Of a DNA stretch of 64,000 nucleotides, positions 24,245-60,506 are shown piece by piece. Below the pieces are notes generated by a model, which searched no databases, was not told the DNA's origin, and saw only the letters and a program-made list of their open reading frames with translations. How positions within the stretch are numbered: position 1 is the stretch's first letter; each line of letters begins with the position of its first letter. A program made the position numbers and the translations under genes. Source of the stretch: a virus; the IMG/VR virus record IMGVR_UViG_3300036045_000005, positions 1 through 64,000 of that record; one strand, given 5' to 3'.

Positions 24245-24829
24245 GTGGCACAGCAAAACACGGCCGCAAAAATCAAACTGGCAGAGCGTCGGCAAATGGC
24301 GGCGGATTTACGCAAGACCGGCCTCTCCTTCCAGGCCATTGCCGACATGATGAGCCAGAGCCTGGGCATCCCCTATAACAAGGCGATGGCTCACCGGGAT
24401 GTGGTGCATGTGCTGGACGAACTGGTGGCGAAAACGTCGGAGACGGCCGAACAGATTTTATCGCTTGAGTTGCTGCGCCTGGATGATTTAACAGCCGCCT
24501 GGTGGCCGACGGCTGTTGGGTTAAAGCCGTTGGTGGGGGTTGACCTGGCAGACCCGGAGGCGGTCAGGCGGTGGCTTGATGCCAACCGGGAAACGCTCGA
24601 TAAGGACGCTGCCAAAATCATCCTGGATGTGATGGCACGGCGGGCCAAGATGCTGGGGCTGGATAAGGAGAATGTCAACCTGTTTACCCCTAAGCCTATC
24701 GTCATGGCTCATGCTGATTTAAGCGACGTTGAGGAAGATGACCTTGACCGTATCATCGCTAACCTACAAGCAGCAGTTGGCTTCCGCCCTGGTGGAGAAG
24801 CAACGGCGGACAACGCGGCCAGCAGTTAG
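24245..24829 (+). CDS. terS: Terminase small subunit-like protein
   Basis: 194 residues. An N-terminal HTH (ERRQMAADLRKTGLSFQAIADMM) would bind the packaging site, followed by a helical oligomerisation region and an acidic C-terminus. Directly precedes the large subunit and overlaps it. The family was not identified by motif alone; position and HTH layout support the call. GTG start with AGGAG upstream. Confidence 0.75.
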   Translation: MAQQNTAAKIKLAERRQMAADLRKTGLSFQAIADMMSQSLGIPYNKAMAHRDVVHVLDELVAKTSETAEQILSLELLRLDDLTAAWWPTAVGLKPLVGVDLADPEAVRRWLDANRETLDKDAAKIILDVMARRAKMLGLDKENVNLFTPKPIVMAHADLSDVEEDDLDRIIANLQAAVGFRPGGEATADNAASS

Positions 24830-26405
24830 TAGCCGTCACACCCCTGGCCTTGATCTACTCTCCTGGACGGCCGTCTATCGCCGCGCCTTAAAACCCGGTG
24901 TGCCATTTGATCTGGTCAGCTACCCCTACCAAGCCGCGCTCTATGCTTGCACTGCTCAACGGATGGTGGTGATGAAGTGTGCCCAGGAGGGTATTAGCGA
25001 GTATGCGGTGAGCTACGCCATTCATGGCTGTGATCAGCGACGGGCTACGGTGTTGTATGTTTTCCCCACTGATACGGCCGTCAGCGACTTTTCTTCTGCC
25101 CGCATTGGCCCGGCGATTGAAGCCTCCAGCTATCTGGCGCGGGTTGTGGTGGATGGGGCAGGCAAGGAGAAAAGCGGCGCAGACCGAATCACCCTCAAGC
25201 GGATTCGTGACAACTTCCTGTATCTGCGTGGTGGGCACGTCAAACCGAACGGTCAGGCCCCGCAATTGAAATCGGTGGATGCGGACATCATCGTCCTGGA
25301 TGAGTGGGATGAGATGGACGGCCGTGCGCCAGCGATAGCCCGCAAACGGTTGGGCCATAGTGCCATTGCTGAGGAGCGGGACATCAGCACCCCAACCTAC
25401 GTTGGTCGGGGAATTCATGCTGAGTACCTGAAATCTGACCAGCGCGAATGGCACGTGCCTTGCCCCCATTGTGGCGAACGCCAGCCCATCACCATCAACC
25501 AGGTTGTGACGGAGTGGGATCAGCTGGAACGGCCGGTTGTCTGGCATGGGATGAAAGACGGCCGTGCCTTTGCTGCCTGCCGCAAGTGCGATGGGGAATT
25601 AGACCGCCTCGCTCCCGGAGAGTGGATTGCTGGCCAACCAGGTCAGCCAGTTGCAGGCTTCCACCTTTCCAAGTTGTTCAGTCCCACCGGAAACCTGGAC
25701 GCGATAGTGGCGGGTTTGCAGGAGGTGGACGAGACGAAGCGGCGGGAGACGGTAAACCAGGATTTGGGGCTACCTTACAAACCACGCGGGGCGAACATTA
25801 CCGATGTGGTGCTTGATGAGTGTCGCCGCGATTATGCCCATGGGCCGGTGCGGGGTGAGCGGCCGTTTATGGGAGTAGATGTGGGGCGGGTGCTGCATGT
25901 GGTCATTCGTGGGCCGCGTAATTCTGACGGTGAACGGCCGCAACGGTTTGCCGGGCATGCGGATAGCTTTGAAGAAGTCGGTCGTCTCGTTCACCAATAT
26001 AACGTGCAGACGGCCGTGATTGACGCTTTGCCGGAGACCCGTAAGGCGCGAGACTTGCAAGCCAGCTTCACAGACGGCCGTGTCTGGTTGGCTTATTACA
26101 CTGGCAGCGACGTGGGCACAAAGAAAGTAGAACCGGCTGATTGGAACGGCCGTGAGGGAGTGGTTAGTCTGGATAGAACCCGAATGATGGACATGACCCT
26201 GGCGCGGTTTATCGGCGGTGCGCCAGAGAACACCCTGCCTGCCTATGCTACCGACATCCCAGATTACTACGCCCAACTGAAAGCCCCGGTGCGCCAATTG
26301 GAAGATGGTATTGCCCGCTACGTGGAGAACGGGCCGGATCACTTCGCCCATGCGGAGAATTACTGCACGGCCGCCGCCCTGCGCGAAAGCTGGCTGTCAT
26401 GGTAG
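24738..26405 (+). CDS. terL: Terminase large subunit (GpA-like)
   Basis: 555 residues. The N-terminal ATPase contains VVMKCAQEGISEYAV (adenine/Walker-like region as in lambda gpA relatives, which show KxxQxGxS) and IIVLDEWDEMD (Walker B). CPHCGERQ and CRKCDG form the zinc site typical of GpA-family terminases. The nuclease half has FMGVDVG (first Asp), TAVIDALPE and a late D/H cluster. It packages DNA into proheads with the terS product. The start is uncertain because the frame overlaps terS; ATG 24738 is the first Met. Confidence 0.88.
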   Translation: MTLTVSSLTYKQQLASALVEKQRRTTRPAVSSRHTPGLDLLSWTAVYRRALKPGVPFDLVSYPYQAALYACTAQRMVVMKCAQEGISEYAVSYAIHGCDQRRATVLYVFPTDTAVSDFSSARIGPAIEASSYLARVVVDGAGKEKSGADRITLKRIRDNFLYLRGGHVKPNGQAPQLKSVDADIIVLDEWDEMDGRAPAIARKRLGHSAIAEERDISTPTYVGRGIHAEYLKSDQREWHVPCPHCGERQPITINQVVTEWDQLERPVVWHGMKDGRAFAACRKCDGELDRLAPGEWIAGQPGQPVAGFHLSKLFSPTGNLDAIVAGLQEVDETKRRETVNQDLGLPYKPRGANITDVVLDECRRDYAHGPVRGERPFMGVDVGRVLHVVIRGPRNSDGERPQRFAGHADSFEEVGRLVHQYNVQTAVIDALPETRKARDLQASFTDGRVWLAYYTGSDVGTKKVEPADWNGREGVVSLDRTRMMDMTLARFIGGAPENTLPAYATDIPDYYAQLKAPVRQLEDGIARYVENGPDHFAHAENYCTAAALRESWLSW

Positions 26406-50827: not shown

Positions 50828-51027
50828 TGCAGCGATTGATTGACCGGCTACTCGCGCCGCGCATCGCCCGCATCCAGGAAGCGGAGCGTGACCGCTTCCG
50901 CCGTCTGATTGGGCAGGTGATGGAGCGACATGAATCACCGGCTGTGCTGCTGGCGGTGGGGCAGTTATTGGAATTACTCGACGAGGAATACAACCATGAT
51001 GGTGACGATGGAGAGGACGGTTGTTGA
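50824..51027 (+). CDS. Hypothetical helical protein
   Basis: 67 residues, one or two charged helices (APRIARIQEAERDRFRRLIG) ending acidic (DEEYNHDGDDGEDGC). It overlaps the LysM gene and the histidine kinase start. Possibly a partner of either. Confidence 0.55.
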   Translation: MMQRLIDRLLAPRIARIQEAERDRFRRLIGQVMERHESPAVLLAVGQLLELLDEEYNHDGDDGEDGC

Positions 51028-52210
51028 AGCAACAACTGTTGAAACGACAACGGTTGGCTGGCTGGCTGCCGCTACCAGGAGGGAGATCATCATTAACAGC
51101 TTGCTAGACCTTCAGGCAATTGTAGAACATGCCCTGGCCGGGATCACCATCGCCGACCGGGAAACCGGCGAGATCATCTACGCCAATCACGAAGCGGCCG
51201 AAATCCTCGGTCTGTCGCGTGATGATGTCAGGATGGCTGCTGGCACGTTGGTGGAACTTATCTATCTCAACGGCGATCCCTTTCCTATCTCTGAGACGGC
51301 CGTGATGAAGGCGCGACGATCCGGCCAGCGCGAACGTGCCACATTCGGCGTGAAGTATCCTGACGGCTCTGTGCGTTGGGTTTCATCGAAGGCTGAGCCG
51401 CGCATACTGCCCGATGGCACGGCCGTGATTGTTGCCAATCTGATGGGGATTACGGACGAAATCAAAGGGCAGCAAGAGCAACTGGAAGCGCAGCGTGAAC
51501 GGCTGGAGTTGGCCGAGTTGCAACAAAACGCCATTGATAATTTGAGCCACGAGATACGCACCCCGCTTAACCTGATTATGGGCTATGCGGATTTGCTGCT
51601 ACACGGGACAGTACCGGATGACCGGATAGCCCACACGTTGGGCATCATCCACCGCGAGGCTAAAGCGGTGGAGTGGATGGCCGAGACGCTCTTGTGGCTG
51701 GGCAAATTGGAATCTGGCAGCGAACTCGCATTTGAGCCATTAGACCTGACGGCCGTTGTCCGGTACCGGGCAGACGCGATCAGTCTGCTGGCTGAGCGTG
51801 AGCAAGTCGCGCTGATAATCGCTGGCGAACTGCCCGCTTGTCGCGTCTCCGGCCATGAAACCCTCCTTTCCCTGGCGATAGGCAACCTGGTTGGCAACGC
51901 CATCAAATTCACCAAGTACAGCGAAACTAGGCAGGTAACGGTCAGCCTGGAAGTGGGGGAGGGGGAGGCGACGGTCTCCGTCACCGATACCGGCATTGGT
52001 ATCAAGCCTGAACATCTATCGCTCATCTTCGAGAAATTCCGCCAGTTGGACGGTGGCAGCACCCGCAAATTCAGGGGGACGGGTATTGGGCTGCACTTTG
52101 TAAAACTCGTTGCGCAGGCCCATGGCGGCCGTGTGGAAGTGGAAAGTGAATTTGGCAAGGGGTCAACGTTCCGGTTGGTGTTGCCCCTGGAGGTCCCCCC
52201 TAGTGCATGA
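50996..52210 (+). CDS. PAS-domain sensor histidine kinase
   Basis: 404 residues, cytoplasmic (no membrane segment). A PAS domain (LQAIVEHALAGITIADRETG ... YANHEAAEILGLSRDD) is followed by a PAC-like part, a coiled coil (QEQLEAQRERLELAELQQ), HisKA with NLSHEIRTPLN (His185), then the ATPase: LAIGNLVGNAIKFT (N box), VTDTGIGI (G1), FEKFRQ (F) and RGTGIGLHFVK (G2). All catalytic residues are present, so it should be active. No response regulator is seen in the window. A complete histidine kinase inside phage late genes is very unusual. ATG 50996 has GAGGAATACAACC ahead. Confidence 0.88.
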   Translation: MMVTMERTVVEATTVETTTVGWLAAATRREIIINSLLDLQAIVEHALAGITIADRETGEIIYANHEAAEILGLSRDDVRMAAGTLVELIYLNGDPFPISETAVMKARRSGQRERATFGVKYPDGSVRWVSSKAEPRILPDGTAVIVANLMGITDEIKGQQEQLEAQRERLELAELQQNAIDNLSHEIRTPLNLIMGYADLLLHGTVPDDRIAHTLGIIHREAKAVEWMAETLLWLGKLESGSELAFEPLDLTAVVRYRADAISLLAEREQVALIIAGELPACRVSGHETLLSLAIGNLVGNAIKFTKYSETRQVTVSLEVGEGEATVSVTDTGIGIKPEHLSLIFEKFRQLDGGSTRKFRGTGIGLHFVKLVAQAHGGRVEVESEFGKGSTFRLVLPLEVPPSA

Positions 52211-52463
52211 AGCAGCCCGGCAGTTAGCGCAACTGGAAGAAACATCTCGTGCCAACGGGGTGGAGATTGCGGCCGTGCATGAAGACCTGCGCGAACTCAA
52301 GGATGAATTTCGGGGACTGTTTAAGCAGCTTCGGGGCGATCTGGCCTACATGCAGAGCCTCCAATTGAAGGATGCCGAAGGGACAAAAAAAAATTGGCAA
52401 GGGTGGCCGCCTTTGTTGGAGACACTTTACTTCCCAGGCTCAACCAGATTGAGCGACAGCTAA
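52203..52463 (+). CDS. Coiled-coil N-terminal part of an EAD-domain protein (frame 0)
   Basis: 86 residues from GTG 52203, overlapping the kinase stop. The first 60 residues form a coiled coil (VHEDLRELKDEFRGLFKQLR). At 52385-52393 a run of nine A occurs; beyond it this frame soon ends (TRLSDS) in unstructured sequence, whereas the -1 frame continues the coiled coil. Likely one gene with 52394-52831, joined by frameshifting or split by an indel. Confidence 0.6.
   Translation: MHEAARQLAQLEETSRANGVEIAAVHEDLRELKDEFRGLFKQLRGDLAYMQSLQLKDAEGTKKNWQGWPPLLETLYFPGSTRLSDS
52385..52393 (+). other. A9 run: candidate frameshift site joining two frames
   Basis: Nine A residues read ACA AAA AAA AAT in frame 0; a -1 slip gives AAA AAA AAA TTG and enters the downstream frame. 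Either programmed slippage, transcriptional slippage, or a homopolymer error. Confidence 0.6.
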
Positions 52464-52831
52464 CGGAACTGGAGCGACTAAGGTTTGAATCTCTTGAACA
52501 GCGTTTGGTGGAATTGGAGAAGCGCATTGACAGGCAGGACACGCGATGGGAACGAGTAACGGCCGCGACCGGCACAGGCCGCCTGGATGCTCGTGCCGCC
52601 TTGCACCAGATGATGGTGAAGGCGTTCAGCCTGGCGGACATGGCAACCCTCTGTTTGGAGATGGACATTGAGTACGACGAGCTACCAGGCGACACCATTT
52701 CTCACAAGGTCACGTCGCTCATTGCTTACATCGGTCGGCGGAACCAACGCTCTGATGGTGAGTGGGATTTGTCAAATCTGGTGAAAAAATTGAAGGAGAA
52801 ACGGCCGTCTTACAAGTGGCCGGATGTGTGA
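52394..52831 (+). CDS. Coiled coil plus EAD7-like effector-associated domain
   Basis: 145 residues from TTG 52394, or the C-terminal part of a fusion with 52203. A coiled coil (RLNQIERQLTELERLRFESL and EQRLVELEKRIDRQDTR) precedes a domain of about 80 residues: LHQMMVKAFSLADMATLCLE, MDIEYDELPGDTISHKVTSL, then LKEKRP. This matches the effector-associated domain 7 pattern (L..F...EL..LC..L..DY..L.G...K...L..Y), known from conflict systems of multicellular bacteria including Chloroflexota, where it recruits partners. In a phage it could act as a decoy or adaptor against such a system. Confidence 0.7.
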   Translation: MARVAAFVGDTLLPRLNQIERQLTELERLRFESLEQRLVELEKRIDRQDTRWERVTAATGTGRLDARAALHQMMVKAFSLADMATLCLEMDIEYDELPGDTISHKVTSLIAYIGRRNQRSDGEWDLSNLVKKLKEKRPSYKWPDV

Positions 52832-53946: not shown

Positions 53947-54006
53947 TTGTAATACAATGGTGAAACAACTTTGGGATTGACGGCCGTTGTAACGTTGTGT
54001 TACAAT
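53947..54006 (+). promoter_or_regulatory. Promoter with TTGTAAC inverted-repeat operator
   Basis: TTGACG (53977-53982), 18-base spacer, TACAAT (54001-54006). TTGTAAC (53987-53993) and GTTACAA (53999-54005) form an inverted repeat between and over the -10. A further palindrome TTGTAATACAA sits at 53947-53957. The small regulator that follows probably represses itself here. Confidence 0.75.
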
Positions 54007-54013
54007 GCGGCGC

Positions 54014-54202
54014 ATGAGCGACACCAAAGAGGATACAGTTCCCGTTAGAATAAGCACCGAGAAGCACAAAGAGCTACAGATTATCAGCCAGCAAACAGAA
54101 TTATCACTACGCTCTCTGGTGGACAGAGCGGCTGATTTGCTGATAGAGCATTGGGGGCAGACGGGGACTGTGCCGCCTAAGACAGAGCGTCGTTCTAAGT
54201 AG
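54014..54202 (+). CDS. Ribbon-helix-helix regulator
   Basis: 62 residues. TVPVRISTEKHKELQIISQQ followed by LSLRSLVDRAADLLIEHW is the strand-helix-helix pattern of CopG/Arc-type repressors. The ATG at 54014 lies about eight bases after the -10, so the message is probably leaderless. Autoregulation through the inverted repeats just upstream is likely. Confidence 0.7.
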   Translation: MSDTKEDTVPVRISTEKHKELQIISQQTELSLRSLVDRAADLLIEHWGQTGTVPPKTERRSK

Positions 54203-54399: not shown

Positions 54400-54606
54400 A
54401 TGAAAAGGCAGACAAAGAAAGGCGGGCAATATCACCTGACATCCGAAGAGGTGGAGGCGTTGACCAAAATACGCCGGCAGCACAAGCGTCGCAAGCCTCC
54501 GCAGCGGAAGGCTGCCGGGCGTGAGCGGCATCCTCTGAATAGAGATAATGTTATCGTCATCCTGCTCATCTTTATTTTTCTGTATCTCGTCCTTCAGGGG
54601 GTGTAG
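54400..54606 (+). CDS. Small protein with basic N-terminus and C-terminal membrane helix
   Basis: 68 residues. Very basic first half (KIRRQHKRRKPPQRKAAGRE) and one hydrophobic end (VIVILLIFIFLYLVL). Tail-anchored; could recruit nucleic acid to the membrane. First gene of the operon encoding the membrane ATPase at 55298. Confidence 0.65.
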   Translation: MKRQTKKGGQYHLTSEEVEALTKIRRQHKRRKPPQRKAAGRERHPLNRDNVIVILLIFIFLYLVLQGV

Positions 54607-54607
54607 C

Positions 54608-54898
54608 ATGATAAATTGGATACCACTTCTCGCAAACACCAACGCGCTCCAAAAGCAGGATGAATACTACACCCAACTCAGGCAGGCTCTCACCGCTCCG
54701 GCCCGCCGTTGCTTGCTGTGCGGCCGTGCCCAACCAGCCAGCACCAAAGACTGGTATGAGATTGACATTGATGCGGATGGGACGCAGTTTCTTGTCTGCC
54801 CCGACGAGGTGTCAGACAAGAGCAACGACCTGGAAGTAGCCAGAGTTTTCATCAATGTGGGGATGAAGATTCAGGAGATGCGAATGCGAAATGGATAA
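54608..54898 (+). CDS. Hypothetical protein with CxxC
   Basis: 96 residues from ATG 54608 (CAGGGGGTGTAGC upstream). CLLCGRAQ and a later CPDE could bind zinc. Overlaps the next start by eight bases. No family recognised. Confidence 0.6.
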   Translation: MINWIPLLANTNALQKQDEYYTQLRQALTAPARRCLLCGRAQPASTKDWYEIDIDADGTQFLVCPDEVSDKSNDLEVARVFINVGMKIQEMRMRNG

Positions 54899-55304
54899 AC
54901 CAATCATCTTTCTTGCGGTGTTGGCACTTGCCCTATGTGGTCTGGCGACGCTTGCCCTACGGCCGACGGTGGACAAGGTGGCGACGGCCGTCATCGAGGA
55001 GCAGACGCGCACCGATCCCATGGAGAGCCTGATCACCTATTCCGCCGAAACGGAGCGCAAGACTAGCCCGATCATCTACATCTTCTGTGGCATGTTGCCG
55101 CTGGTAGTATTATTTACGGCCGTGTTCTTCATGGAACACGCCACCGACTTTCTGCGGGAGCGTCGGCTGTCAAGGCGGAAAGGTCGGCGACACTCCCCCA
55201 CCCTGCCACTCCCTCACCGGCCGGACGTATCACATCTATACGAACCATCTCGTGTCCCCCTACCTGCCCCGCCACATGACAGTCAAGGAGATCGCCAATG
55301 GTAA
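54891..55304 (+). CDS. Two-pass membrane protein
   Basis: 137 residues. Hydrophobic segments at 4-23 (PIIFLAVLALALCGLATLAL) and 61-80 (IIYIFCGMLPLVVLFTAVFF), with a basic, Pro-rich cytoplasmic tail. Probably a partner of the ATPase encoded next, whose start it overlaps. Confidence 0.62.
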   Translation: MDKPIIFLAVLALALCGLATLALRPTVDKVATAVIEEQTRTDPMESLITYSAETERKTSPIIYIFCGMLPLVVLFTAVFFMEHATDFLRERRLSRRKGRRHSPTLPLPHRPDVSHLYEPSRVPLPAPPHDSQGDRQW

Positions 55305-56869
55305 AAGTGACGGCTGTCTTGCTGCTCTTCCTGCTGCTGACCGCCTGCGCCACCCCACCTGCTCAACCGGGCGCAGGGGGTTATAGTTATGATCCAGCGG
55401 TCAACGCCACTATTGCTGCGCGTGGTGCCCAGGATGCGGCGGCGACCTATGAGGCAGTGCAACGGGCAACAACCGTATCGGTGCAGCAAACGGCTGTTGC
55501 TGCTCAGAACGCCACAGGAACGGTGCAGGCGGCGGCCACCCGGACAGCAGCGGTTGCTACCAGCACGGCCGAAAGCCTGAGCATCCAAGCTACCAGTATT
55601 GCGCTGGCGGCCGTGCAGACAGGCAACGCCATCAACGCCCAGGCCACGCAGATCGCAGTGGTGGCCGAGCAGACTCGATTGGCCCAGGAAGCGGCTAATA
55701 TCGAGATGGCTCGCGCCGACCAGCAACGACGGCTAGAAAACCAGCGCGACCGGGAGGAGATGTGGAACACCATTATCTTCCCAGCCCTGGTGTTGGTGGC
55801 GGTGTTGGTGGCTGTTGGCGGCATCGTGTATGCCGCCGTCTATATCTGGCGCCGGACGCAGCCGGTCATCCATGTGACCATCAACGGCCGTGATGTGCCG
55901 ATGATCCTGGATGGACAGCGCGGTGGCTACAAATTGCTGCCGCAAAATGTGATAGGTGATGTGCTGGCGCCGCCTGCCCCGGCGAGTGCGGCCGTGCAGC
56001 CCGAACCACTACCTGCCTTGCCGGAAGGCCACGTAGTGATTGCTGGCCCAACGCGTAGCGGGAAGACAACCACCCTCCTGGCAATTTTGCAACACCGGCA
56101 AGACGTGGTGGCGATAGACCCGCACGGGGCACCAGGCAAATGGGGCGATGCCCGTATGCTTGGTGCGGGGCGCAATTTTCAGGAAATTGCAGCCTTCATG
56201 CAATGGATGGAAGCGGAATTGAATCGCCGTGCGCAAGCATTGGCGGCCGACGCAAACACCAAGTTTCCTGAGATGACAGTGGTGGCCGATGAATTACCGG
56301 CCATAGCCGATGAGCTGGGTGGAGATCGTGCCTACAGCAGTTGGAAGAAGTGGGTGCGCGAAGGATGGAAATTCGGATTGTACTTTGTCTTTTCGTCTCA
56401 AAGTCTCCAGGTAAAGCCATTGGGACTAGAAGGCGAAAAGGACATACTGCGGAACTTCGTGGCCGCTATCGCTCTGGGCGGGGAGGCGGTTGAACGGTAT
56501 CCAGATTTGGCGCGGGGGATGGAACGTCCGGCTGTGCTGCGCACACTGCGCGGGACTGCCCGTGTCATCATCCCGCAAGTGGGATCGCCATCCTCCACCT
56601 CACCGACCAATGGCTATGTCGCCCCACCGGTCATCAACCTGCCCAATCCGCGCAGCCAGGCGGAGGTAGACGGCCGTGCCATGGATGGTGTTATCGCCGA
56701 GTGCGATTCGCTCAATGACGTAGGTCGTGTGCTGATGGATGCTGGCCCGGATGATATGGAAACACGGCCGTCTGGTCAGATGTTGCGGGAACGGGTGCGG
56801 CCGGCGTTGGCCTGGCGCATTAACTATCTGAGTTGCCCAGATTCAAGTCGGATATTGATCGGACGATAA
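55298..56869 (+). CDS. Lipoprotein-anchored FtsK/HerA/VirD4-like ATPase
   Basis: 523 residues. A lipoprotein signal (LLLFLLLTAC, lipobox Cys17), an Ala/Thr-rich repetitive region (residues 35-140), a membrane helix (IIFPALVLVAVLVAVGGIVY), then a cytoplasmic ATPase: VIAGPTRSGKTTTLL (Walker A, about 249), DVVAIDPHGAPGKW, and EMTVVADELPAIADE (Walker B). This resembles DNA-translocating or coupling-protein ATPases of plasmids. Lipid anchor outside and ATPase inside on one chain is unusual. It might move DNA at the membrane or interfere with host conjugation. Confidence 0.75.
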   Translation: MVKVTAVLLLFLLLTACATPPAQPGAGGYSYDPAVNATIAARGAQDAAATYEAVQRATTVSVQQTAVAAQNATGTVQAAATRTAAVATSTAESLSIQATSIALAAVQTGNAINAQATQIAVVAEQTRLAQEAANIEMARADQQRRLENQRDREEMWNTIIFPALVLVAVLVAVGGIVYAAVYIWRRTQPVIHVTINGRDVPMILDGQRGGYKLLPQNVIGDVLAPPAPASAAVQPEPLPALPEGHVVIAGPTRSGKTTTLLAILQHRQDVVAIDPHGAPGKWGDARMLGAGRNFQEIAAFMQWMEAELNRRAQALAADANTKFPEMTVVADELPAIADELGGDRAYSSWKKWVREGWKFGLYFVFSSQSLQVKPLGLEGEKDILRNFVAAIALGGEAVERYPDLARGMERPAVLRTLRGTARVIIPQVGSPSSTSPTNGYVAPPVINLPNPRSQAEVDGRAMDGVIAECDSLNDVGRVLMDAGPDDMETRPSGQMLRERVRPALAWRINYLSCPDSSRILIGR

Positions 56870-56878
56870 GGAGCAGAG

Positions 56879-57079
56879 ATAAGCAGCACAACGAAAGACT
56901 GGTGGCTGGAGTGTCCACATTGTGGCGGCAAGTTGGGGTTTGTGGAAAGCGCGGTGAAGAGGGGTGACCCGTTGCGAGCCAGTCTCAAAGAGGCGTGTGA
57001 TTGTGGTCACTGCAAAAAACGTGTGCCAGCCAGGGCGATGCTATGGAAAACCCGCCCGCCCCAAAAAAGGCAGTGGTAG
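56879..57079 (+). CDS. Zinc-ribbon protein with apparent ATA start
   Basis: 66 residues. AAGGAG (56868-56880 region) is placed five bases before an ATA codon at 56879, and no ATG, GTG or TTG precedes the first zinc pair. The product WWLECPHCGGKLGF ... CDCGHCKKRVPAR has two CxxC/CxC pairs like many small phage proteins. AUA starts are rare but known. Confidence 0.5.
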   Translation: MSSTTKDWWLECPHCGGKLGFVESAVKRGDPLRASLKEACDCGHCKKRVPARAMLWKTRPPQKRQW

Positions 57080-57097
57080 TTTCCCCTGTTGGCAGAC

Positions 57098-57128
57098 AAA
57101 AAACCGCTGGGACACGGCGGTTTTTTGT
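57098..57128. terminator. Bidirectional intrinsic terminator
   Basis: AAAAAACCGC (57098-57107) and GCGGTTTTTT (57117-57126) with a nine-base loop. It ends the operon that began at 54400. Confidence 0.85.
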
Positions 57129-57134
57129 TGCGAC

Positions 57135-57250
57135 GCACTGCGATAAATCTCGTCGCAATCCCCCTCCCCCATCGCACTGCGACCAGAGGTACGCACTGCG
57201 ACGCATTGCGACTGCGACGCGGAAAAACAGCAACCCCCACATAGTCGCAA
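57135..57250. repeat. Iteron-like cluster of GCAYTGCGAC
   Basis: Direct copies begin at 57135, 57174, 57193, 57203 and a shortened one at 57211; inverted copies lie at 57152-57159 and 57243-57252. Within 57080-57426 there is no gene. The cluster is followed by an AT-rich stretch (57255-57420). The layout suggests an origin, partition site or multi-operator control region. Confidence 0.7.
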
Positions 57251-57352: not shown

Positions 57353-57382
57353 TTGACAAAATCAAACACTTTGATTTATAAT
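57353..57382 (+). promoter_or_regulatory. Promoter with AATCAAA-N3-TTTGATT operator
   Basis: TTGACA (57353-57358), 18-base spacer, TATAAT (57377-57382). The spacer holds AATCAAACACTTTGATT (57360-57376), a perfect 7-3-7 palindrome. The same operator lies at the same place in the promoter at 60514. Confidence 0.88.
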
Positions 57383-57426
57383 TCAAAACACCTTGATCAT
57401 TTGGTTGTAAAAAAGGAGTGTGGATC

Positions 57427-58083
57427 GTGGATAAAATCACCTGGAAAAAGAGCAAAGTTGAGGGAAGAACTGGCGTTTCCGTGCCGTACAATGCGGTATT
57501 CAACGAGCAACTGCAAGCAGCCGTGCCTTCGGCCAAATTCGAGCGGCAACCCTCGGCCTGGTTTATAGACGAAGAAGCGAAGGAGGAGGTCATCCCCCTG
57601 CTGGAAAAATTCTACCTGAACACGTCGCGCTACCGCGTGACCTGGGACATTAAGCAGGCGGGCAACATCCTGATTGATGGCGCGCGACTGATGTGGGTCA
57701 ATCGGGACCATTATAAATTCAGCCACGATCATGGCCTGGCGTTTAAGGTCGTGGAGAATACGCTGGACACCAGTGGTAGCCGCGCCAACCCTTATATTTA
57801 CGGCCGTCTGGTGCTGGAAATCTCCCTGCGCGAAGGTGCGGTGATTGAGCCAGCGCCGACTGAGATGGTTGCTATGGTGGAGGATGAGACGGCCGTGCGC
57901 CCCAACCAGCTAGCCGCCTTCCCCACCAGTGACCTGGTGGCAGAGTTGGAGCGACGTGGGCAGGCCAGCGAGACGGCTGCACAGGAGGCGATTAAGGCCA
58001 TCCTGACGGCCGTTGAGAAATCGAGTCGGGTACTTTTTGAAGAAGCGATTGAAAAAGCAAAGCACGTCATTGAGTACGCATAA
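57427..58083 (+). CDS. Replication-associated protein with HARP-like N-terminal segment
   Basis: 218 residues. RTGVSVPYNAVFNEQLQAAV ... FERQPSAWFIDEEAKEEVIP resembles the small domain found at the N-terminus of SMARCAL1-type helicases and in phage/plasmid DNA proteins. The C-terminal part is helical and acidic. It is first in the operon that encodes an SNF2 helicase, so it may act with it on DNA. GTG 57427 is favoured, as AAGGAGTGTGGATC fits it. Confidence 0.62.
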   Translation: MDKITWKKSKVEGRTGVSVPYNAVFNEQLQAAVPSAKFERQPSAWFIDEEAKEEVIPLLEKFYLNTSRYRVTWDIKQAGNILIDGARLMWVNRDHYKFSHDHGLAFKVVENTLDTSGSRANPYIYGRLVLEISLREGAVIEPAPTEMVAMVEDETAVRPNQLAAFPTSDLVAELERRGQASETAAQEAIKAILTAVEKSSRVLFEEAIEKAKHVIEYA

Positions 58084-58445: not shown

Positions 58446-59113
58446 GCGAGTTACTTCTTGTCCGCCCCCCTACCCCAAAGACGGCCAGCATTGCCCGTAT
58501 CTCGTTTGACGGCGCGATGCTGCGTTGCTTCTTCCCGGAGAAGCGGGAGGACTTCAACCAGATCGTGAAGTGTCACAATCTGCGGTGGCAATCGCCGTAT
58601 TTCGTGCGTGAGATTACAGACGACACTGACCGCCTGAATTGGACGGCCGAACTCATCCACGCGCTGCTGGCTGGCGGCTTTTGCGTGAAAGCGGATGAGA
58701 GCCTCGTCCACACGGCCGTCAATCAGAGCTACACGAAAGAACCGCGTCGCACGGTATCGGCCGTTCGGACTGACCACTCGCAGTATGGTGGCTGGTTCCG
58801 CATCTGGTGGCATCGGGACGAGGACTGCTATCAGGTAGCCAAACGGCTGCCCGGAGCGCGGTACGCCAAGCCAGTTGTGGTGGTGCCGCCCGACAGTTTC
58901 GCCGAAGTACTGGATTTTGCGGAGCGGCACGAGTTTTTGGTACGGCCGTCGGCGTTGCGTGTGGCCGATGCTGCGCGGGCCGAACTGGAAGCGGCTCTGG
59001 TGGTGAGTGTGGCTGCGCCGGTAGAGCCAGAGGTGGTACGGCCGTCCACCAAACCACCCAAACTAGAAGTTCCCGATAAGGTGGCGATAGATGAATCGCT
59101 TCTCGATGATTAG
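58442..59113 (+). CDS. Helicase-associated (HARP-like) protein
   Basis: 223 residues. Two segments typical of helicase accessory domains: ARISFDGAMLRCFFPEKRED...RWQSPYFVREI and DEDCYQVAKRLPGARYAKPV, VVVPPDSFAEVLDFAERHEF. In some phages this domain is fused to SNF2 helicases; here it is separate and overlaps the helicase start by 23 bases. It probably gives DNA binding or fork specificity. Confidence 0.65.
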   Translation: MSELLLVRPPTPKTASIARISFDGAMLRCFFPEKREDFNQIVKCHNLRWQSPYFVREITDDTDRLNWTAELIHALLAGGFCVKADESLVHTAVNQSYTKEPRRTVSAVRTDHSQYGGWFRIWWHRDEDCYQVAKRLPGARYAKPVVVVPPDSFAEVLDFAERHEFLVRPSALRVADAARAELEAALVVSVAAPVEPEVVRPSTKPPKLEVPDKVAIDESLLDD

Positions 59114-60506
59114 TTCCCCCTACCCTCACCAGATTCCCGCCATTGAAAAGTTGTCCCGGCCGCGTGTCGGGGCGGCTTTTATGGAGATGGGCACGGGCAA
59201 GACGTTCGTGGCCTTGAACCTGGTACACAGCCGTCAGTCTCGCATCAATCGTGTCATCATCTATTGCCCGGTGTCTGGCAAGGAAACGTGGTATGAGGAA
59301 ATACGCAAACACACGGATGTACGGCCGTGTGACATCTGCCTGTTCGACGAGCGCACGAATATACGAAGCGTTCCCCGCTCTGCTTCCTGGCTAGTGATTG
59401 GCATTGAGAGCATGAGCAGTTCCGACCGCGTGGCCCTGGCCGCCCACGATCTGACGACGAGCGAGACGTTTGTCATCGCCGACGAGGGCAGCTACATCAA
59501 GGGTCATCGGGCCAGGCGGACGCAGCGCATCACTCGCTACAGCGAGGATTCGCGCTACCGGCTGCTGCTGAACGGCACACCGATTAGCCAGGGGTACGAA
59601 GACCTGTACGCCCAAATGAACTTCCTCAGCCCCAAAATCCTGGGGTACGGGTCATTCTACAGCTTCGCCGCCAACCACCTGGAATACTCCGAGAAATACA
59701 AGGGGTTGGTGGTCAGGGCGCACAACACCTCCTGGCTGGCGGCGAAGATGAACCCCTACATCTATCAGATAACCAAAGAGGAGGCGGGGCTGAACCTGCC
59801 ACCGAAGCTATATGACAGCCGCTATTTCCCGCTTGCCCGTGAGCAGCGGGAGGCATATGAGCAGGCGAAATACGAAATCCTGATGGATGCGGAGGAGGTG
59901 GATAGCTACGTCATCTTCCACCTGTTCACGGTGTTGCAGCAGATCGCCAGTGGCTTTTGGAAGCGGGACGGCTGTTTGTTGGAATTCCCTCACCGGCGCG
60001 TGGAGATGTTGCTGGATTACATGGAGGATGTCGGGGATCAGGAAAAGGTCATCATCTGGACGAAGTTCCGCCACTCCGTGCGCCAGATAACGGAAGAGTT
60101 GGCCGGGAAATACGGCCGTGATTCAGTGGCGCAGTATTACGGCGACCTGAACGAGAAGGAACGGGCGGCGGAGTTGGCCCGGTGGCGGCGAGAGGCTCGG
60201 TTCATTGTGGCAACAATGGAGACAGGTGGGCATGTGCAGACCTGGAACGAAGCGGCGTACAGCCTGTTCTATGAAAACGAATTCAAATACGCCAACCGGC
60301 TCCAGGCGGAGGACAGGAATCATCGCATCGGCCAGGGGCGACGACCGACCTATACCAACCTCTGGGCGCAGTGTGGGATTGAGGAGCGGATTGCGGCCAG
60401 CCACGCGAAGAAGGGGGACACGGTGCGAGATTTCCGGCGCGAAGTTGACAGGCTGAAGGATTTGAAGGGGAAGGAGTTGAAGAAGGCAGTCTTGGAATTA
60501 CTATAA
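59091..60506 (+). CDS. SNF2-family DNA helicase/translocase
   Basis: 471 residues. PYPHQIPAIEKL (Q-like motif), FMEMGTGKTF (motif I, 30-39), FVIADEGSYIKG (motif II, DEGS instead of DEAH), LLLNGTPISQGYEDLY (motif III), EKVIIWTKFRH (motif IV), and QAEDRNHRIGQGRR (motif VI). This is the compact SNF2 helicase found in many phages, used for replication or recombination. No primase domain is attached. Confidence 0.92.
   Translation: MNRFSMISSPYPHQIPAIEKLSRPRVGAAFMEMGTGKTFVALNLVHSRQSRINRVIIYCPVSGKETWYEEIRKHTDVRPCDICLFDERTNIRSVPRSASWLVIGIESMSSSDRVALAAHDLTTSETFVIADEGSYIKGHRARRTQRITRYSEDSRYRLLLNGTPISQGYEDLYAQMNFLSPKILGYGSFYSFAANHLEYSEKYKGLVVRAHNTSWLAAKMNPYIYQITKEEAGLNLPPKLYDSRYFPLAREQREAYEQAKYEILMDAEEVDSYVIFHLFTVLQQIASGFWKRDGCLLEFPHRRVEMLLDYMEDVGDQEKVIIWTKFRHSVRQITEELAGKYGRDSVAQYYGDLNEKERAAELARWRREARFIVATMETGGHVQTWNEAAYSLFYENEFKYANRLQAEDRNHRIGQGRRPTYTNLWAQCGIEERIAASHAKKGDTVRDFRREVDRLKDLKGKELKKAVLELL

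What the first reader, a model, noticed from the sequence alone, without database searches (positions are those of the whole stretch)
54400..57079. Membrane operon with a lipoprotein-ATPase chimera
A basic tail-anchored protein, a CxxC protein, a two-pass membrane protein and an FtsK/HerA/VirD4-like ATPase with an N-terminal lipobox and one membrane helix are overlapping genes under one leader terminator. This looks like a DNA-handling complex at the membrane, closer to conjugation parts than to virion genes. It could serve entry exclusion, transfer of the circular form, or blocking of plasmid transfer.
Basis: partly seen in the sequence, partly recalled or inferred. Interest (0 to 1): 0.75.

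Follow-up and report, generated by a model that had tools for sequence, protein, structure and literature searches.

The report
Plasmid-type DNA pump in a phage
A tailed phage, probably of a Chloroflexota bacterium, carries a plasmid-style gene set for a membrane-anchored DNA motor, followed by a cluster of short repeats that the motor may grip; this suggests the phage DNA can be moved or kept between cells like a plasmid, without making virus particles.

Summary
Genes 54400-56869 encode a basic tail-anchored protein, a CxxC protein, a two-pass protein and an FtsK/TcpA-fold ATPase with intact motifs, an N-terminal lipobox and one membrane helix. They lie between two strong hairpin terminators. 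A fifth, zinc-ribbon ORF (56879-57079) may follow.

The genome is a 73.6-kb tailed phage with a 127-bp terminal repeat, its own terminase, portal and capsid genes, and a ParA/RHH-like pair. The ATPase is therefore unlikely to be the packaging motor.

Its relatives sit on cyanobacterial plasmids, Chloroflexota elements and a few phages. They usually lie behind small membrane-protein genes, and in Chloroflexota often beside ParM.

New here: 260 bp after the ATPase stop lies the most clustered 6-mer of the whole genome, TGCGAC x7. Several relatives have a comparable array there, each with its own motif. In two paralogues the ATPase C-terminal domain and the array have diverged while most of the intervening sequence stayed about 90% identical. 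This resembles Streptomyces TraB, Spd proteins and the clt site.

Best reading: an element-specific membrane dsDNA motor that spreads or segregates the circular phage genome. DNA binding, lipidation and transfer are all untested.

The parts
53977..54006 (+). Candidate sigma-70-type promoter (TTGACG-18-TACAAT) with the palindrome TTGTAAC-N5-GTTACAA (53987-54005) overlapping it
   Evidence: consensus matches only; the palindrome is the only perfect copy in the window
54014..54202 (+). Small ribbon-helix-helix-like protein, possible autoregulator or site-binding protein (62 aa)
   Evidence: weak: PHROG Arc-like repressor E=0.014, Pfam Antitox_RHH E=0.11; an RHH-like ORF also precedes the homologous pair in L006
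54338..54384 (+). Leader terminator/attenuator hairpin with T-run, about 16 nt before gene 1
   Evidence: -33.8 kcal/mol, z=-5.8
54400..54606 (+). Basic tail-anchored membrane protein (68 aa); no homologue found
54608..54898 (+). CxxC protein (96 aa); no homologue found
54891..55304 (+). Two-pass membrane protein (137 aa); aligned with L006:7555-7935 at the same position
55298..56869 (+). FtsK/TcpA-fold membrane ATPase: lipobox C17, predicted helices 33-108 and 111-186 (the latter includes the TM 159-177), motor about 245-395, low-confidence helical C-terminal tail
56879..57079 (+). Possible fifth gene, four-Cys zinc-ribbon-like protein (66 aa), GGAG site, ATA start
   Evidence: not confirmed as a gene
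57095..57129 (.). Hairpin terminator at the end of the operon
   Evidence: -21.9 kcal/mol, z=-4.8
57129..57249 (.). Array of seven TGCGAC/GTCGCA sites (5 on +, 2 on -), candidate recognition (clt-like) site of the ATPase
   Evidence: 7 of 23 genomic copies in about 120 bp; 0 of 60 simulated genomes reach this clustering
57353..57382 (+). Perfect-consensus promoter (TTGACA-18-TATAAT) of the next gene block; marks the end of the module

Best explanation
The operon is a plasmid-type DNA-moving module inside a temperate tailed phage that probably lives as an episome. The ATPase is held in the cytoplasmic membrane by a lipidated N-terminus and one helix, with an extracellular helical stalk or hairpin and the motor in the cytoplasm. 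Its C-terminal tail, or a partner, grips the TGCGAC array just downstream. The ring then pumps the phage's circular double-stranded DNA, with the small membrane proteins acting like Streptomyces Spd proteins. Most likely this spreads the prophage episome across septa or cell contacts (TraB-like); moving it during division is nearly as likely. Shown by computation: gene layout, intact motifs, FtsK/TcpA fold, array, conserved context, co-divergence of the C-terminal domain and the array in relatives. Inferred: lipidation, DNA binding, translocation, spread.
For: The motor core folds like TcpA and FtsK. The family profile matches the pIJ101 Tra (TraB-type) motor (hhalign prob 95, E 2e-8) but not the phage's terminase (prob 2.5). 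Small membrane-protein genes precede the motor gene in most relatives. A repeat array follows the motor gene at +260 here and at +369 to +448 in six relatives, with different motifs. Paralogues L020/L021: core 90%, membrane protein 93% and downstream 122-aa protein 86% identical, but C-terminal domain 58%, and the arrays differ. L017/L094 have the most similar C-termini of all pairs (65%) and similar motifs, ATCCTGAG/GTCATGAG. In Streptomyces, one FtsK-like Tra protein plus a clt repeat site next to the tra gene suffices for transfer, and Tra binds clt (PMC3583192); spd genes are diverse and include integral membrane proteins (PMC4170104). The phage has ParA and no Pfam Relaxase or Replic_Relax hit.
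Against: No transfer has been shown for any family member. The window protein's C-terminal tail is modelled with low confidence and aligns poorly with the relatives' HTH tails, so its DNA-binding role rests on analogy; the covariation comes from cyanobacterial relatives only. The array could instead be a partition centromere or replication origin: in L006 it lies beside ParA. The array position is significant mainly through one clade (10/46 loci, p about 8e-5; 6/42, p about 0.02 with that clade counted once). Many relatives have no array directly downstream.
Confidence: 0.45

Rival explanations
1. Segregation motor: the ATPase works like a private FtsK/SpoIIIE for the phage-plasmid, clearing or resolving circular copies at the division septum, together with ParA or ParM partition proteins and a tyrosine recombinase.
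For: 8 of 11 actin-like ALP_N genes found in 30 genomes/records lie within about 3 kb upstream of the ATPase gene. The phage and its relative share a ParA-RHH-like pair (41% and 36% identity). A tyrosine recombinase is on most of these elements.
Against: The array is local, not spread polar KOPS-like sites (7 of 23 copies in one place). A ParA/ParM partition system is already present, so a second segregation engine would be unusual. The lipid-anchored stalk has no obvious role.
Confidence: 0.3
2. Coupling protein for relaxase-dependent mobilisation through another element's secretion channel.
For: Fold match to the coupling protein TcpA. Replic_Relax genes lie near the ATPase in six Chloroflexota elements.
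Against: No Relaxase or Replic_Relax in the phage or in several small plasmids of the family, pDU1 included, and no other secretion genes were recognised in the phage.
Confidence: 0.08
3. Superinfection or plasmid exclusion system at the membrane, or a defence ATPase.
For: Lipoprotein and small membrane proteins recall exclusion factors; neighbouring genes (histidine kinase, EAD7 protein) look accessory; weak mad8 match over the P-loop.
Against: No effector or nuclease in the operon; relatives are spread over plasmids with partition genes and element-specific arrays, which exclusion does not need.
Confidence: 0.07
4. Virion DNA-packaging or injection ATPase (A32/P9 type).
For: Structure search in viral proteins also finds A32-like packaging ATPases.
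Against: The phage has a GpA-type terminase, portal and capsid; the profile does not match the terminase; relatives are on plasmids without capsid genes (for example the 6.4-kb pDU1).
Confidence: 0.02

Closest known systems
Streptomyces TraB/Tra (pIJ101, pSVH1, pWTY27) with clt and Spd proteins
   Same: FtsK-like membrane motor, adjacent cluster of short repeats, small diverse membrane-protein genes nearby, works without relaxase; profile match to pIJ101 Tra; clt next to the tra gene in pWTY27
   Different: Here on a tailed phage; shorter protein; lipobox and extracellular helical segment; no sequence similarity outside the motor core; transfer not shown
TcpA coupling protein of pCW3 / FtsK motor domain
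   Same: Closest solved folds of the motor core
   Different: TcpA serves a secretion channel (stated in PMC5365140); FtsK uses a gamma domain and KOPS, not seen here
ATP-binding protein of the Nostoc plasmid pDU1 and kin
   Same: Same ATPase family, small upstream membrane-protein gene in several, HTH-like C-terminal tail
   Different: No lipobox or long stalk; function never reported as far as I found
Planktothrix phage PaV-LD ORF127L/128L
   Same: Another tailed phage with a distant member annotated FtsK/SpoIIIE behind an overlapping gene
   Different: Different N-terminus, no array found nearby, no ParA hit
TdtA of Thermus (transjugation)
   Same: Mobile-element-encoded FtsK-HerA ATPase that exports DNA on cell contact (PMC5365140)
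   Different: HerA-type, no DNA-binding domain detected, no lipobox described

Membership tests
FtsK/TcpA/VirD4 (FtsK-HerA) motor superfamily | RecA-like motor with Walker A, Walker B and FtsK/TcpA-type fold | tested here: met
   Motifs conserved; model core pLDDT about 90; top PDB hits TcpA and FtsK, E about 1e-7
FtsK/TcpA/VirD4 (FtsK-HerA) motor superfamily | Pfam FtsK_SpoIIIE above its curated cut-off | tested here: inconclusive
   21.3 bits against 24; 24.4 bits by summed fragments
Streptomyces TraB-clt transfer module | Membrane-anchored FtsK-like motor, homologous to TraB | tested here: met
   hhalign prob 95.4, E 1.9e-8 over the motor core only; TM segments
Streptomyces TraB-clt transfer module | Cluster of short repeats (clt) near the motor gene | tested here: met
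   TGCGAC x7 at 57129-57249; binding not tested
Streptomyces TraB-clt transfer module | C-terminal helix-turn-helix domain that reads clt | tested here: inconclusive
   Helical tail at pLDDT about 50 in the window protein; HTH-like tails and co-divergence with arrays in relatives
Streptomyces TraB-clt transfer module | Self-sufficient double-strand DNA transfer between cells | not testable with these tools
   needs an experiment
Relaxase-dependent coupling protein (T4CP) | Encoded with a relaxase and a secretion channel | tested here: not met
   No Relaxase or Replic_Relax in the phage; other relaxase families were not searched
Phage packaging ATPase | Terminase (or the sole packaging ATPase) of the virus | tested here: not met
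   Separate GpA terminase at 24729-26405; no profile match to it
Phage-plasmid | Phage structural genes plus plasmid maintenance genes on one circular genome | tested here: met
   Terminase, portal, capsid, ParA, 127-bp terminal repeat; an integrase-type recombinase is also present, so chromosomal integration is possible
Bacterial lipoprotein | Signal peptide with lipobox cysteine | tested here: met
   Pattern match at C17, also in the L006 relative; lipid attachment itself not testable here

The most novel reading that the evidence does not exclude
A tailed phage that has two ways to spread: virions, and a TraB-like pump that moves its circular double-stranded genome directly from cell to cell (for example along filaments), using an element-specific repeat array and a lipid-anchored motor with an extracellular stalk; the same unrecognised family would explain how many small 'non-mobilizable' plasmids of filamentous cyanobacteria and Chloroflexota spread.
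Probability: 0.3. Interest if true: 0.9.

Novelty: new variant of a known kind. Interest (0 to 1): 0.62.

Why it matters
If right, it links phages to relaxase-free DNA transfer as in Streptomyces and extends that mode to Cyanobacteriota and Chloroflexota, where the sequence-based matches to named cyanobacteria found here are, as far as I know, mostly filamentous genera. It offers a testable cis-site for each element and a candidate transfer or maintenance role for a gene on pDU1, a plasmid used to build laboratory vectors. A lipid-anchored FtsK-type motor with an extracellular helical stalk has, as far as I know, not been described.

Tried and rejected
Single-protein scans of viral contigs with the ATPase, the two-pass alignment and the CxxC protein found no relatives; tblastn of the window ATPase against phages found none. 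Packaging ATPase: rejected because a terminase is present. KOPS-like polar motif: rejected, the motif is local. 'Non-mobilizable' as evidence against transfer: dropped, because pIJ101, a conjugative TraB-type plasmid, carries the same MOB-suite label and pPg_01 has a relaxase despite it. PADLOC mad8 hit: covers the P-loop only, not followed. Literature searches found nothing on this family.

Full report
Observation. Genes 1/2 abut, 2/3 and 3/4 overlap, and their codon-position GC resembles that of the phage's terminase and capsid genes. The ATPase has a lipoprotein-type signal with Cys17, a hydrophobic helix at 159-177, and intact Walker A, Walker B and Q-sensor motifs. The leader hairpin ends about 16 nt before gene 1, leaving no room for a promoter, so the operon depends on read-through; a second hairpin closes it at 57095-57129. 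A small RHH-like gene (54014-54202) precedes the leader hairpin; its candidate promoter overlaps the palindrome TTGTAAC-N5-GTTACAA. A possible fifth gene, a zinc-ribbon-like ORF with an ATA start, follows the ATPase.

The genome. The window is 64 of 73.6 kb of an IMG/VR record whose first and last 127 bases are identical. It encodes GpA-type terminase, portal, capsid and an integrase-family recombinase. Outside the window it encodes ParA (68024-68965; Pfam match) followed by an RHH-like gene (68962-69300; no Pfam match). I therefore read it as a temperate tailed phage with plasmid-type maintenance, possibly also able to integrate. The host is inferred only from the kin of the ATPase (Chloroflexota side of the tree).

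Relatives. The nearest is a second 73.4-kb viral contig (L006), with an RHH-like ORF, a two-pass protein, a lipobox ATPase with the same domain order, a 113-aa gene and then ParA. Two-pass proteins align at 27%, ParA proteins are 41% identical. More distant members are on cyanobacterial plasmids including pDU1, in 21 of 400 Chloroflexota and 22 of 386 Cyanobacteriota genomes and in phage PaV-LD. In most, small or multi-pass membrane-protein genes directly precede the ATPase gene. In Chloroflexota elements a ParM-like gene is typically upstream (8 of 11 ALP_N genes, one record probably a provirus of a counted genome) and Replic_Relax is sometimes near. Only the two phage proteins have both the lipobox and the long Ala/Thr/Gln-rich segment.

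Structure. The model gives two long helices, 33-108 and 111-186, the second including the membrane helix, then a well-predicted motor core; the tail is uncertain. A lipid-anchored start and a membrane helix at 159-177 would put the segment between them outside the cell, perhaps as a hairpin, and the motor inside. Best solved matches are TcpA and FtsK. The family profile matches pIJ101 Tra (prob 95) and a staphylococcal plasmid FtsK-like protein (prob 97), but not the phage terminase (prob 2.5).

The array. From 57129 to 57249 there are seven TGCGAC/GTCGCA sites in both orientations. This is the strongest local clustering of any 6-mer in the genome; none of 60 simulated genomes of the same trinucleotide make-up matched it. 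In five related cyanobacterial loci and in L006, the top array also lies +369 to +448 after the ATPase stop, each with a different motif. The L006 array partly reflects a hairpin and repetitive coding sequence and is the weakest of these. Across 46 loci the top array falls within about 600 bp downstream in 10 (about 2.3 expected; 6 of 42 with the related clade counted once). Two paralogues of one Phormidium genome are about 90% identical through most of the operon except at a linker before the motor core, at the ATPase C-terminal domain, and at the array. The simplest reading is that the C-terminal domain reads the array.

Mechanism. These features parallel the Streptomyces system: a single FtsK-like Tra protein, a repeat-containing clt site next to its gene, and diverse Spd proteins, without relaxase (PMC3583192, PMC4170104, PMC5365140). 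I put the general claim, an element-specific membrane DNA motor of plasmid type that is not a virion part, at about 0.75; cell-to-cell or septal spread at about 0.45; pure segregation at about 0.3. A possible third use, serving as a coupling protein, fits the Replic_Relax-bearing elements better than the phage.

Limits. I found no experiment on any member. The window protein's tail is poorly predicted and aligns badly with its relatives, so its link to TGCGAC is by position and analogy. The array could be a centromere or origin. Genes 1 and 2 are orphans. The filamentous-host pattern of the named cyanobacterial hits (from my own knowledge of these genera) is suggestive only.

Noticed in passing
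window 50930-52210 and 52394-52831: A PAS-histidine kinase (Pfam PAS, HisKA, HATPase_c) and a protein with effector-associated domain EAD7 (E 2.6e-16) lie between the tail/lysis genes and the ATPase operon; both are unusual in a phage.
   Followed up: no
window 57418-58083 and 59091-60506: A gene block behind a perfect-consensus promoter includes an SNF2-type helicase (59091-60506); the 57418-58083 product looked HARP-like by eye but has no Pfam match.
   Followed up: no
L079 (G253:C177), downstream of the ATPase: ORFs downstream of the ATPase carry a repeated translated motif (FKTLQSGSVMR), suggesting an interspersed DNA repeat, perhaps a CRISPR-like array on this small Chloroflexota contig.
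   Followed up: no
L010:4725 on, L007:10959 on, L011:4729 on: Other strong 6-mer arrays on these elements lie next to RHH or replication genes (possible centromeres or iterons).
   Followed up: partly
L009 and L019: The same stretch occurs in a viral contig and in a contig of a TM6 genome assembly, so that candidate phylum may carry a member of the family, or the bin is contaminated.
   Followed up: no
L013 and L018 (Patescibacteria bin): pDU1-like plasmid contigs binned in a Patescibacteria genome; probably cyanobacterial plasmids mis-binned.
   Followed up: no
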